DNA from: an uncultured Chloroflexota bacterium
Lineage (GTDB): Bacteria > Chloroflexota > Dehalococcoidia > Lucifugimonadales > GCA-002694895
Reading direction: 5' to 3'
NCBI GenBank assembly: GCA_913045935.1
Contig: CAJWSY010000008.1
Coordinates: 1-41,665, forward strand
Length of the DNA: 41,665 nucleotides
In this document: positions 6,509 through 11,590 of the stretch, in pieces
Layout of the letters: every line of letters begins with the position of its first letter
Position numbering within the stretch: the stretch's first letter is position 1
Translations under genes and position numbers: made by a program
Notes under the pieces: generated by a model
Databases searched by the model: none
Told to the model about the DNA's origin: nothing
The model's input: the letters and a program-made list of their open reading frames with translations, nothing else

Positions 6509-7237
6509 TTAAGAATTGTTAATAATTTTGTAAAAGGTTTGTGGATCCAAACTTGATCTACCAATAAGCAATCCATTTATATTTTGTTTTTCTAGATATT
6601 TTTTATAATTATTTATATTTACACTTCCTCCATATACTGCAGATGTATCAATTTGGTTATTTAAAATTTTTGCTTTATAGTGTATAAATTTTAAAACTTT
6701 ACTTGCCCTATCAGGATCACAAAATTTATCATTACCAATTGCCCAAACAGGCTCATAAGCAATGATTATATTTTTGAAATTAATGTTTTGGTAAATTGAT
6801 TCTAATTGTTGTTCAATAAATTCTAAAGTGTTATCTATGTTTTTGTTAAATATTTTTTCACCTATGCAAACAATGGGTATCAAATTATATTCAGAGCATA
6901 ATTTTAGTTTTGCTTGAATTTCTTTATTAGTTTCACCTTTTTCTCTGATTTCTGAGTGGCCAATTATAATATAACTACAATATGGACTTACTAGTTCGGC
7001 AGAAATACTTCCTGTATTTGCTGCATTGGTAGCGCTTGAAATATTTTGCGCTCCTAATTCAACGCTTTTCATTGTATTAAAATTACTTTCTGCATAATCT
7101 AATAGAGTAAATGGAGGACAAATAATTATTTTGGAAGATTCAGGAACATTACTTTTCGATAATATATTAGTAAAATCATCTACTAAGTTTTTTGACCCAT
7201 TCATTTTCCAGTTAGCGATGTAATAAGAGTTCTTCAT
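6509..7237 (-). CDS. tpiA: Triosephosphate isomerase
   Basis: YIANWKMNGS, IIGHSE, AYEPVWAIG, VYGGSVNINN, GLLIGRSSL. Confidence 0.96.
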   Translation of the reverse strand: MKNSYYIANWKMNGSKNLVDDFTNILSKSNVPESSKIIICPPFTLLDYAESNFNTMKSVELGAQNISSATNAANTGSISAELVSPYCSYIIIGHSEIREKGETNKEIQAKLKLCSEYNLIPIVCIGEKIFNKNIDNTLEFIEQQLESIYQNINFKNIIIAYEPVWAIGNDKFCDPDRASKVLKFIHYKAKILNNQIDTSAVYGGSVNINNYKKYLEKQNINGLLIGRSSLDPQTFYKIINNS

Positions 7238-7240
7238 TAT

Positions 7241-8386
7241 TTAATTTAATTTATTTTCTATTATAGCGTCTATTCCTGGCAATGAACCATTTTCAATGAA
7301 TTCCATGAATGCTCCACCCCCAGTAGAGACATGGTTAAAGTTACTGAAATTACCAAATTGGTTTATTGATTGGACAGTAGAACCTCCGCCTGCGACTGTA
7401 TATGCGGCTTCATTACCCTGAATCGAATTTATAATTTGCATAGTACCGATACTTGTTTCTTTTTCTTCGAATATACCCATAGGGCCATTCCATAAAATAT
7501 AAATTGAATCATTAATGATTTTTGTATATTTATTTATACTTTTTGGTCCTATATCAACTATTTGATCATCACTCGAAAAATCTTCAATTAGTTTAGTTTT
7601 AATTGTATTGTTTGATTTTATCAAAATATCATCTGGTAATATAATTTTAGTGATTCCGTTATTTAAAATTAATTTTGCTGTATTGTAGTTATCATCTTTG
7701 GAATTTATAAAAGATTTTATCATTCCTCCACCAATTAGTATTGTTTCTACTTTTTTTATAAAATTTTGAAGAATTAGTATTTTGTCGTCTATTTTAGCTC
7801 CACCAAAAATAGCAGTAGAATTTTTAAATTGTGGATTTGAATTTAATACAGAAGTGTATTCATCGTACATTTTATAACCCATATAACTTGGTAAATATAG
7901 AGGAACTCCCGTTATAGAAGAATGGTTTCTATGAGATACTGCAAAAGCTTCATTTATGTAAAAATCAGCTAAAGAAGATAGTTTTTTACTAAAAATATCT
8001 GAATAACTTTCTTCATCTCTGAAGAATCTTATGTTTTCAAGTAATATAATTTCATTTGTATTGATTGCATCGATTTTGTTTTTTATTTGTTGATCATCTA
8101 ATTCTAAAAAATTTACTTTATAATTAAGAACATTTTCAATTTCCATCACAAGTTTATTTAACGAAAAGGTTGGATTTTTCTTACCAGAAGGTCTACCTAA
8201 ATGAGAAATCAAAATAACTTTTATTTTGTTATTTATCAATAAGTCTATGGTTTTTTTTACAGCATGAATTCTAGTATTGTCTAATATAATATTTGTATCT
8301 GAAATAGGAACATTAAAATCAACTCTCAATAAGCATGATTTGTAGTTTTTGTTTACGATTTGTTCTATATGAAATTTTTCTTTCAT
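7241..8386 (-). CDS. pgk: Phosphoglycerate kinase
   Basis: LLRVDFNVPI, ISHLGRP, AVSHRNHSSITG, LWNGPMGIFE, GGGSTVQSI, STGGGAFMEFI. Confidence 0.96.
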   Translation of the reverse strand: MKEKFHIEQIVNKNYKSCLLRVDFNVPISDTNIILDNTRIHAVKKTIDLLINNKIKVILISHLGRPSGKKNPTFSLNKLVMEIENVLNYKVNFLELDDQQIKNKIDAINTNEIILLENIRFFRDEESYSDIFSKKLSSLADFYINEAFAVSHRNHSSITGVPLYLPSYMGYKMYDEYTSVLNSNPQFKNSTAIFGGAKIDDKILILQNFIKKVETILIGGGMIKSFINSKDDNYNTAKLILNNGITKIILPDDILIKSNNTIKTKLIEDFSSDDQIVDIGPKSINKYTKIINDSIYILWNGPMGIFEEKETSIGTMQIINSIQGNEAAYTVAGGGSTVQSINQFGNFSNFNHVSTGGGAFMEFIENGSLPGIDAIIENKLN

Positions 8387-9372
8387 TGTAATAAAGATTG
8401 TATGTTTATGCTTAAATCGTTATTTGTTTTGTTATTTTGAGAAATAAGTTTTTCAAGCTTAGTTTTTAATTTTTGTATGTGATTAGTATATTTTTTTGAA
8501 ATCTTATTTGAATAAAACAATTCATGCAAAAGTTTGATATCATTATTTTCCAACATTCGTTTCATATATATTGTACCTAGTTTTTTTACATGTTCGAGAT
8601 CATTTTCATATTCTTTAAAAACATAAGCTATCGGTAATATTTTTTTCTTATTTAAAATTTCATTTTCTAATTTACTAAAATTATAATTTAAATTTTCAGA
8701 AAGTAAATTTTTAAATGCGTATTCGTGCATTTCGTATAAATTTATTTCACCGATTGTTTTAAAAATACTTTTGATTAAATTTGTATTATCAAAAAGTTCT
8801 GAGATGTATAAATACGGCTCGATTTCTTTTAGTTCGTAGATGCTAACAATATTATCAAAGTTTATTTTGTATTGTTCAGAGTTTTGTAATTCTAAGAATT
8901 TACTTTTAAATATATTAGTATTCAATTTGTCGAATTTATTAAGTATGTTTAAAATTTCATTCTCTTCTATGTTTTTGTCATTAATTATTAATAACCTAGA
9001 TAAACTATATAGAGAATCTCCTACATTTATTGCTTGTGCAGGTCCCCATTTCCACCATAAAGTATCTTTGCCATTTGAGTTTGGTGTTCCCGACCCTATT
9101 TCGTCATGAACAATTATTCCAGATTTAAATAAAAACAAAGCAGATAAGCCTGTAATTATTTTAGAATAAGTAGTTTTATTAATGTGGGCATCAATGAAAT
9201 TAAGAGCATTTTTTATTTCTTTGAAATTTAGGTCTAAATATGAATTTTCAATTTTTATTTGATTAGTTTCATATATCTGATATGAGATCATATCTTTCAG
9301 GCCTTGGTCTATATCTTTAGTTGTATTCTCAATATTTATTACTATTTGTTCAAGGTGTTTGCTTAAATTCAT
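8383..9372 (-). CDS. Divergent polyprenyl synthetase-fold protein lacking canonical Asp-rich motifs
   Basis: SGIIVHDEIGSGTPNSNGKDTLWWKWGPAQAINVGDSLYSLSRLLI aligns with the HDDIxD..RxxxPTLWxxWGxxQAINxGDxLFALA region of polyprenyl synthetases. ATGA overlaps with both the upstream and downstream genes. Confidence 0.7.
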   Translation of the reverse strand: MNLSKHLEQIVINIENTTKDIDQGLKDMISYQIYETNQIKIENSYLDLNFKEIKNALNFIDAHINKTTYSKIITGLSALFLFKSGIIVHDEIGSGTPNSNGKDTLWWKWGPAQAINVGDSLYSLSRLLIINDKNIEENEILNILNKFDKLNTNIFKSKFLELQNSEQYKINFDNIVSIYELKEIEPYLYISELFDNTNLIKSIFKTIGEINLYEMHEYAFKNLLSENLNYNFSKLENEILNKKKILPIAYVFKEYENDLEHVKKLGTIYMKRMLENNDIKLLHELFYSNKISKKYTNHIQKLKTKLEKLISQNNKTNNDLSINIQSLLQ

Positions 9373-9989
9373 TGAATATTTATCCCGGTATTTTTAATAT
9401 CATTTATTGTTATTTTCCCTTCTCTTATAATTTTAATTTTTTCTTTTGTCATATCTAAGATTGTGGACGGATTATTTGATGTTTTATTATAATCACCAAA
9501 AATTATCAGATCTACTTGATCTCCTAAGTCTTTTACAATATTTTCTTTTATCAAGCTATGTTTTTTTCCTGATATATTTGCACTAGTGCCTGTAATTCCA
9601 CTTTTTATTTTATTCATAATTTCAATTAAGTTAGAATTATCAGGAATTCTAATTGCAACATTTTCTGTATTCCCACTAATTATATTTGATATATTTGATT
9701 TTTTCTTGACTATAAGTGTTAATGCTCCTGGCATGAATGTTTCAATCAATTCCTCACATTCTTGACTTATATGTTCAGAGTATTCGTAAAAAAAACTTTT
9801 ATCAGGAACTAAAACAGGTATTCCTTTAGAAATATCTCTGCCTTTGATTTTTAGAATTCTTTTCAAACTATTTTCTTCATTTATAATACAACTAAGTGAA
9901 TAGATTGTGTCTGTAGGTAGTACTACAACTCCGCCATTAGATAGTAAATTAGTTATAATATTTTTTGTTTTGTCTAAAGAGAACTCCAT
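9369..9989 (-). CDS. L-threonylcarbamoyladenylate synthase (Sua5/YciO/YrdC)
   Basis: GGVVVLPTDTIYSLSC, LKIKGRDISKGIPVLV, ALTLIVKKK, VAIRIPDN, TGTSANISGKKH. Confidence 0.93.
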   Translation of the reverse strand: MEFSLDKTKNIITNLLSNGGVVVLPTDTIYSLSCIINEENSLKRILKIKGRDISKGIPVLVPDKSFFYEYSEHISQECEELIETFMPGALTLIVKKKSNISNIISGNTENVAIRIPDNSNLIEIMNKIKSGITGTSANISGKKHSLIKENIVKDLGDQVDLIIFGDYNKTSNNPSTILDMTKEKIKIIREGKITINDIKNTGINIQ

Positions 9990-10030: not shown

Positions 10031-11590
10031 ATGAGCTTATTAAATAATACTGAAAAGAAATATAACACAGTTATTATAATTGATTACGGATCACAATATT
10101 CCAAACTTATTGCAAGAAGAATTAGAGAATGTAATGTTTACTCTGAAATTATTACTCCTGATGAAAGTTATAGTAATTTAGCAAATAAAAACATAGGCGG
10201 TATAATCTTATCTGGAGGACCTGCTGGGATAAACGAACCTGGATCTCCTAAGATTCCGAATTGGCTTTACAAATTTGATGTCCCAATATTAGGTATATGC
10301 TATGGTTTGCAAGCAATAATTCATGACCAGGGCGGTTCTGTATCTTCTTCACAGCATTCTGAATACGGAAATTCTAAAATAAAAATTAAAAATTCAAAAG
10401 AAAAATTATTTAAAGGTTGTGATAATAATTTTAATGTTTGGATGAGTCATGGAGATTCTGTAACTTCAATGCCTGAAGGCTATGATCTAATAGCCTCAAC
10501 AGATTCATGCAAATATGCTGCTGTTAAATCAGGAAATATTTATGGTATACAATTTCATCCTGAAGTAGTCCATACTGAGAATGGTAGTAAAATTTTAGAT
10601 AATTTTGTGAAAGAAATATGTAAGATTTATCCTGAATGGACTTCTGAACATTTTATTACTACAACTATTGAAAAAATCAGAAAACAAGTTAATGATAATA
10701 AAGTACTTTGTGCAATCTCTGGAGGAGTTGATTCTTCCGTGACAGCAGCTTTAATAAATAAATCAATCGAATCTAATTTGATATGCTTGTTCGTCAATAA
10801 TGGGCTTTTAAGGAAAAATGAACATAAAGATGTTGTTAGAAAATTCAAAGAAGCTAATATTGATGTTCAGTATGTAGACGCTACAGAACAATTTATTTCT
10901 AATTTAAAAAATATAACTGATCCTGAAGAAAAAAGAAAAATAATAGGCAATACATTTATTTCTGTATTTGAGTCATTCACAAAAAAAAATGACGATATTA
11001 AGTTCCTGGCACAAGGAACTCTGTATCCAGATGTAATAGAGAGTGCTACTAATGATTCTCCAAATGCGTCAAAAATAAAAACTCACCATAATGTTGGAGG
11101 ACTCCCTGAAGACATGAATTTTGAACTTGTCGAACCATTAAGAAATTTATTTAAAGATGAAGTGAGAGGCATAGGGCGAGAATTGGGACTTCCAGATTTT
11201 TTAGTAGACAGACAACCGTTTCCAGGCCCAGGACTAGGGATTAGAATAATGGGTGAAATCACTTTTCCAAAACTTGAGTTATTAAGAGAAGCAGATTGGA
11301 TATTAATGGATGAAATTAAAAAAAATAATTTGTATGAAGATTTATGGCAAAGTTTTGCTGTACTACTTAATACACAAACAGTTGGTGTAATGGGAGACCA
11401 TAGAACGTATGAATATACTATAGCTATTCGTGCAGTGAAAAGCGAAGATGCTATGACTGCTGATTGGGCTAAATTACCTTACGATCTTCTAGATTCAATA
11501 TCATCTAGAATTACTAACGAGGTCAATGGCATTAATCGAGTGGTTTATGATATTACTAGTAAGCCTCCAGGAACAATTGAATGGGAGTGA
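10031..11590 (+). CDS. guaA: GMP synthase (glutamine-hydrolysing)
   Basis: [51 protein letters not shown]-terminal [13 protein letters not shown]. Confidence 0.97.

What the first reader, a model, noticed from the sequence alone, without database searches (positions are those of the whole stretch)
8383..9372. Polyprenyl-synthetase-like pseudoenzyme embedded in a pgk/tpiA/miaA operon
The region HDEIGSGTPNSNGKDTLWWKWGPAQAINVGDSLYSLSRLLI is recognisable as polyprenyl synthetase, but the first DDxxD motif reads DEIGS. The expected GxxFQxxDDxxD region reads GEINLYEMHEYAF although the following KKKILPIAYVF (canonical RKKTLPV) is kept, and no GGKRxRP motif is visible. Both Mg-binding Asp clusters therefore appear lost while the fold is kept. 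The gene is ATGA-coupled to both sua5 and pgk, so it is clearly maintained. Binding a prenyl diphosphate, or acting as the non-catalytic subunit of a heterodimeric synthase, are possible roles. Its co-operonic neighbour miaA uses DMAPP.
Basis: partly seen in the sequence, partly recalled or inferred. Interest (0 to 1): 0.65.

Follow-up and report, generated by a model that had tools for sequence, protein, structure and literature searches.

The report
Prenyl synthase that lost its catalysis
A gene that once encoded an isoprenoid-building enzyme has lost its catalytic residues throughout a large group of marine SAR202 bacteria, yet is kept intact in the same operon, most likely because its protein now serves as the non-catalytic half of a two-part enzyme.

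Summary
Window 8383-9372(-) encodes a 329-aa protein with the trans-isoprenyl diphosphate synthase fold. It has no GGKRxRP, reads HDEIGS at the first Asp motif and has no conserved acid at the second. It is not one decayed gene. Orthologs at the same operon position (sua5-X-pgk) occur throughout its order (SAR202-type Dehalococcoidia, Chloroflexota). Only 1 of 105 relatives keeps the three Mg-ligand Asp; most keep just the non-ligand Asp of each motif. The window's genus lost those too. Outside the order, the same locus, there often beside dxs, carries a fully canonical enzyme. So this is an in-situ catalytic loss, maintained by purifying selection (dN/dS 0.13-0.26, like pgk and miaA). All 15 order genomes examined also have a canonical short-chain paralog, near hopanoid genes in several. 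That paralog keeps every catalytic residue but has rewritten helix E (AGD to AGN in 13 of 15), while the pseudoenzyme keeps helix E as WWxWGPAQAINxGD. Helices E and F form the dimer interface in this fold. Best explanation: a non-catalytic partner subunit of the short-chain synthase, like Dlp1/PDSS2 or plant SSU. Pairing is inferred, not shown; rivals are interface insulation or a new ligand-binding role.

The parts
8383..9372 (-). PPSL: polyprenyl-synthetase-like pseudoenzyme, 329 aa
   Evidence: homologs in 59 of 60 relatives
9091..9108 (-). remnant of the first Asp-rich motif, HDEIGS (residues 89-94); canonical HDDxxD
9016..9057 (-). helix E signature WWKWGPAQAINVGD (residues 106-119), the most conserved stretch of the family
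   Evidence: AF2 helix 111-130
8707..8751 (-). region of the lost second Asp-rich motif, GEINLYEMHEYAFKN (residues 208-222); low-confidence in the model
8632..8652 (-). retained NKKKILP (residues 241-247)
8539..8580 (-). family-specific C-terminal motif LGTIYMKRMLENND (residues 265-278)
9369..9989 (-). sua5 (t6A tRNA modification), overlaps the PPSL start by 4 bp
7241..8386 (-). pgk, overlaps the PPSL stop by 4 bp

Best explanation
PPSL descends from a canonical short-chain trans-prenyl diphosphate synthase that occupied this same operon position, in several relatives beside dxs (shown by synteny and tree). In the order ancestor or soon after, it lost the IPP-binding Lys/Arg and the Mg-ligand aspartates; the window's genus went further and lost the rest of the second motif (shown). 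A canonical short-chain paralog elsewhere in the genome kept all catalytic residues but rewrote helix E, the known dimer-interface helix (shown as sequence change). I infer that the two descend from one homodimer and now form an obligate or preferred heterodimer: the paralog catalyses, and PPSL supplies the opposite half of the interface, stabilising the enzyme or setting its product length or regulation. In the window genus, PPSL has shed almost everything except helix E, the NKKKxxP strip and the LGxIYxKR...D motif, as expected of a pure structural or regulatory subunit.
For: Outside the order the same locus holds a canonical enzyme with GK..R, DDxxD and a second Asp motif. PPSL is one clade (99/98) whose sister is such an in-situ enzyme, G095 (98/84). 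Catalytic loss: IPP-site K 7% and R 12%; first motif D5 17%; second motif D1 14%; the non-ligand D2 of each motif 93%. In human FPPS the Mg ligands are Asp103, Asp107 and Asp243, which by motif order are D1, D5 and second-motif D1 (PMC3343387). Short-chain paralog: all five catalytic residues in 15 of 15, but helix E AGD to AGN in 13 of 15; the long-chain synthases of the same order keep GD in 13 of 13. Of 99 ancestrally conserved columns, those lost only in the paralog fall in helix E (6 of 12 against 2 of 87, p 2e-5), and the window genus keeps 10 of 12 helix E columns against 18 of 87 elsewhere (p 4e-5). Helices E and F form the dimer interface in most trans-prenyltransferases (PMC7261888). 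The paralog was found in all 15 PPSL-bearing order genomes checked. Purifying selection on PPSL matches pgk, tpiA and miaA.
Against: No direct evidence of interaction. Mirror-tree correlation is not specific: PPSL tracks pgk (r 0.73) better than the paralog (r 0.62) once the window genus is removed. Conservation across all columns shows no overall anticorrelation between the two paralogs (rho 0.006). The genes are unlinked. The helix E test was defined after looking at the alignment, and columns are not independent. In most of the order D2 of both motifs and several basic residues survive, so some residual ligand binding is possible there.
Confidence: 0.5

Rival explanations
1. Insulated homodimer with a new job: after duplication the two paralogs diverged at helix E to avoid cross-dimerising. 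PPSL homodimerises and binds a prenyl diphosphate or another ligand as a sensor or carrier, without catalysis.
For: Helix E divergence between the paralogs is equally expected from avoidance of paralog interference. Family-specific conserved residues (WWxWGPAQ, R126, K244, YxKR, D278) could line a ligand site.
Against: The window genus lost most of the other ancestrally conserved columns and kept helix E, which fits a partner better than a ligand sensor.
Confidence: 0.25
2. Still an enzyme, but a different one: most of the order uses the surviving D2 residues and basic residues for an IPP-independent reaction on an allylic diphosphate (terpene-cyclase-like or phosphatase-like).
For: First- and second-motif D2 are 93% conserved, and K187, R102 and K253 (numbering of the canonical relative) are 79-98% kept in the wider family. 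Class I terpene cyclases share this fold and do not use IPP (general knowledge).
Against: Three Mg ligands together in only 1 of 105 relatives. The window genus has D2 to E, no acid at the second motif and a low-confidence second-motif region.
Confidence: 0.15
3. Slowly dying relic: catalysis was taken over by the paralog and PPSL is decaying, held only by operon position.
For: The stem branch of the window genus is very long (2.68 changes per site), and the canonical function is clearly carried by the paralog.
Against: No internal stop in the best matches, found in most of the order (59 of 60 relatives match, and the strict signature in 139 of 197 genomes), dN/dS 0.13-0.26 like essential neighbours, and kept in streamlined genomes near 1.3 Mb.
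Confidence: 0.05

Closest known systems
Dlp1 / PDSS2 (D-less subunit of decaprenyl diphosphate synthase, fission yeast and human)
   Same: Prenyl diphosphate synthase relative that lost the Asp motifs, works only with a catalytic paralog, heterotetramer (PMC4049637).
   Different: Eukaryotic, long-chain ubiquinone pathway; the proposed partner here is a short-chain enzyme near hopanoid genes, and PPSL is an in-situ descendant in a bacterial operon. No sequence comparison with Dlp1 was made.
Geranyl(geranyl) diphosphate synthase small subunit (SSU), mint and other plants
   Same: Same fold, DDxxD lost, regulatory partner of a catalytic large subunit in (LSU.SSU)2 (PMC7839719).
   Different: Arose in plants; the plant-specific features were not looked for here.
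HexA / HepS, small subunits of Gram-positive hexa- and heptaprenyl diphosphate synthases
   Same: Bacterial non-catalytic subunit paired with an Asp-motif-bearing partner; HexA influences chain length (PMC7839719).
   Different: Long-chain products; no HexA- or HepS-type family appeared in the Pfam or NCBIfam scans of PPSL.
Canonical short-chain trans-IPPS (IdsA/IdsB/FPPS type)
   Same: Ancestor by synteny and tree; same fold.
   Different: IPP site and Mg ligands lost.

Membership tests
Canonical trans-isoprenyl diphosphate synthase (PF00348) | all-alpha isoprenoid synthase fold | tested here: met
   AF2 pTM 0.81; Foldseek TM mostly 0.68-0.74 to GGPPS/FPPS
Canonical trans-isoprenyl diphosphate synthase (PF00348) | first Asp-rich motif DDxxD | tested here: not met
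   DEIGS in the window; D5 in 17% of the family
Canonical trans-isoprenyl diphosphate synthase (PF00348) | second Asp-rich motif | tested here: not met
   no acid at the aligned positions in the window genus; D1 in 14% of the family
Canonical trans-isoprenyl diphosphate synthase (PF00348) | GGKRxRP IPP-binding Lys and Arg | tested here: not met
   K and R together in 1 of 105 relatives, none of the window genus
Canonical trans-isoprenyl diphosphate synthase (PF00348) | Pfam gathering score | tested here: not met
   18.6 bits against 27; order relatives outside the genus score about 70-132 bits
Non-catalytic subunit of a heteromeric prenyl diphosphate synthase | Asp motifs lost, fold kept, stably maintained | tested here: met
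Non-catalytic subunit of a heteromeric prenyl diphosphate synthase | catalytic paralog in the same genome | tested here: met
   15 of 15 order genomes checked
Non-catalytic subunit of a heteromeric prenyl diphosphate synthase | physical complex with the catalytic subunit | not testable with these tools
   no multimer prediction available; sequence evidence is indirect
Non-catalytic subunit of a heteromeric prenyl diphosphate synthase | correlated evolution with the partner | tested here: inconclusive
   mirror-tree r 0.62, below that with pgk at 0.73

The most novel reading that the evidence does not exclude
An order-wide bacterial heteromeric short-chain prenyl diphosphate synthase in SAR202: a duplicated homodimer split into a catalytic subunit with a rewritten dimer helix and a catalytically dead subunit that preserves that helix. 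The relatives record successive steps: canonical, canonical with the new WWxWGPAQ helix (G095/L124, L112), dead, and finally reduced to the interface in the window genus.
Probability: 0.42. Interest if true: 0.65.

Novelty: new variant of a known kind. Interest (0 to 1): 0.52.

Why it matters
Non-catalytic prenyl synthase subunits are known from plants, fission yeast and human, and Gram-positives, mostly without a record of how they arose. Here the ancestor still sits at the same locus in sister lineages, and catalytic and dead forms can be lined up step by step. If pairing is confirmed, product control of the farnesyl- or geranylgeranyl-level step in one of the most abundant deep-ocean bacterial groups would rest on a subunit that annotation pipelines call a synthase or miss (the window copy fails the Pfam cut-off). 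If it is refuted, an order-wide pseudoenzyme under strong selection still has no function, which is directly testable with two genes.

Tried and rejected
Pseudogene: rejected on intact frames, synteny and dN/dS. Misalignment hiding the Asp motifs: rejected, since the flanking H89, GPAQAIN and KKKxLP anchors align and the loss is shared by the family. Functional link to miaA via DMAPP: not needed, the operon position is inherited from a canonical prenyl synthase, beside dxs in several relatives. Mirror-tree coevolution: not discriminating. Whole-protein anticorrelation of conservation between the paralogs: absent. Literature searches combining SAR202 or Chloroflexi with polyprenyl or heteromeric prenyl synthase found nothing.

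Full report
What is there. The ORF 8383-9372(-) encodes 329 aa and overlaps sua5 and pgk by 4 bp each. Sequence matches to polyprenyl synthetases are weak and confined mainly to the N-terminal half (Pfam 18.6 bits, cut-off 27; NCBIfam 1.7e-6; PDB 1e-6). An AF2 model built from the window protein and 71 relatives has pLDDT 80.7 and pTM 0.81, with residues 36-48 and 207-229 (the second Asp-motif region) below 50. The best Foldseek hits in the PDB, as listed, are trans-isoprenyl diphosphate synthases, most of the top matches at TM 0.68-0.74. The fold claim therefore holds, with the caveat that the alignment includes at least one relative that still looks canonical (L124).

How widespread. Homologs were found in 59 of 60 relatives, although some of the weaker matches are canonical paralogs. 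A scan of GTDB genomes for GPAQ[AG]IN[AV]G gave 165 loci, of which the best 80 were kept; their titles name SAR202, Dehalococcoidia or Chloroflexi. The strict DNA pattern for WWxWGP[AG]QxIN[AV]G matches 139 of 197 order genomes and, in a phylum sample, 6 of 8 order genomes against 0 of 392 others; the reversed-pattern control gave none. The gene order sua5-PPSL-pgk-(apgM)-tpiA-miaA is shared by most of the 20 neighbourhoods read. Among named loci, sua5 precedes PPSL in 54 of 73 and pgk follows it in 63 of 73.

Where it came from. In Dehalococcoidia outside the order the same locus carries a canonical enzyme with GK..R, DDxxD and a second Asp motif, often in the order sua5-rpiB-dxs-PPS-pgk-apgM-tpiA-miaA. 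A maximum-likelihood tree puts all 30 PPSL rows in one clade (99/98) with the in-situ enzyme of G095 as sister (98/84); its bootstrap had not fully settled. G095/L124 already has WWIWGPAQGINAGD but is otherwise canonical. L112 likewise keeps the three ligands and the IPP-site Lys and Arg. So the new helix E motif preceded the loss of catalysis.

What was lost. In 105 order relatives outside the genus the IPP-site Lys is kept in 7% and its Arg in 12%; first-motif D1 57%, D2 93%, D5 17%; second-motif D1 14%, D2 93%. In human FPPS the three Mg ions are held by Asp103, Asp107 and Asp243 (PMC3343387), which correspond by motif order (my mapping) to D1, D5 and second-motif D1. The family thus kept the non-ligand Asp of each motif and lost the ligands; all three occur together in 1 of 105. 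The window genus has D90-E91 and nothing acidic at the aligned second motif.

It is maintained. Against its three congeners PPSL shows dN/dS 0.13, 0.20 and 0.26, within the range of pgk, tpiA, miaA and sua5 (dS is high, 1.7-1.8, so values are rough). Amino-acid identities (65, 57, 50%) resemble pgk and miaA.

The paralog. PF00348 hits per genome are three in the order (PPSL plus two canonical; two in G004, which is incomplete), and one to three outside it. In all 15 PPSL-bearing order genomes checked there is a canonical short-chain paralog; 15 of 15 keep K, R, both first-motif ligands and the second-motif ligand. In several order genomes it lies near presqualene/phytoene synthase, squalene-hopene cyclase or HpnH genes, so an FPP-type product is inferred. 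Its helix E has changed from QAINAGD to forms such as KALIAGN; the GD aspartate is Asn in 13 of 15, while the long-chain synthases keep it in 13 of 13 order and 8 of 8 outgroup genomes. Among 99 ancestrally conserved columns, 6 of 12 in helix E are lost only in the paralog against 2 of 87 elsewhere; PPSL lost 0 of 12 there and 17 of 87 elsewhere; the window genus keeps 10 of 12 against 18 of 87. Published structures put the dimer contact of most trans-prenyltransferases at helices E and F (PMC7261888).

Interpretation. Catalysis concentrated in one paralog and the dimer helix frozen in the other is what a homodimer split into a heterodimer would leave. Known parallels are Dlp1/PDSS2 (PMC4049637), plant SSU and HexA (PMC7839719). 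It is equally what two paralogs avoiding each other would leave, and the mirror-tree test does not separate the two. I put pairing at 0.5.

Limits. The genome is 76% complete. Region tests were chosen after inspection and columns are not independent. The taxonomic names come from record titles of relatives, not from the window's own record. No complex was modelled or measured.

Noticed in passing
L207, L208, L209, L211 (G076:C30, G097:C7, G066:C11, G088:C22): Other Dehalococcoidia outside the order carry a further divergent polyprenyl-synthetase-like protein: one long-branch clade without GGKR (L207-L209) and a degenerate one with a WW motif (L211). Degenerate prenyl synthases seem to recur in this class.
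   Followed up: partly
L055, L213-L218: The canonical short-chain paralog lies beside nuo genes and, depending on genome, suf genes or presqualene/phytoene synthase, squalene-hopene cyclase and HpnH genes.
   Followed up: partly
window 7237-7241; L043:6445-7245: The apgM-type phosphoglycerate mutase found between pgk and tpiA in most of the order is absent there in the window genus; in G040 a histidine phosphatase gene lies at that place.
   Followed up: no
window 11526-11590: The listed start of the yyaL-like ORF overlaps the guaA end by 65 bp; the true start is probably downstream.
   Followed up: no
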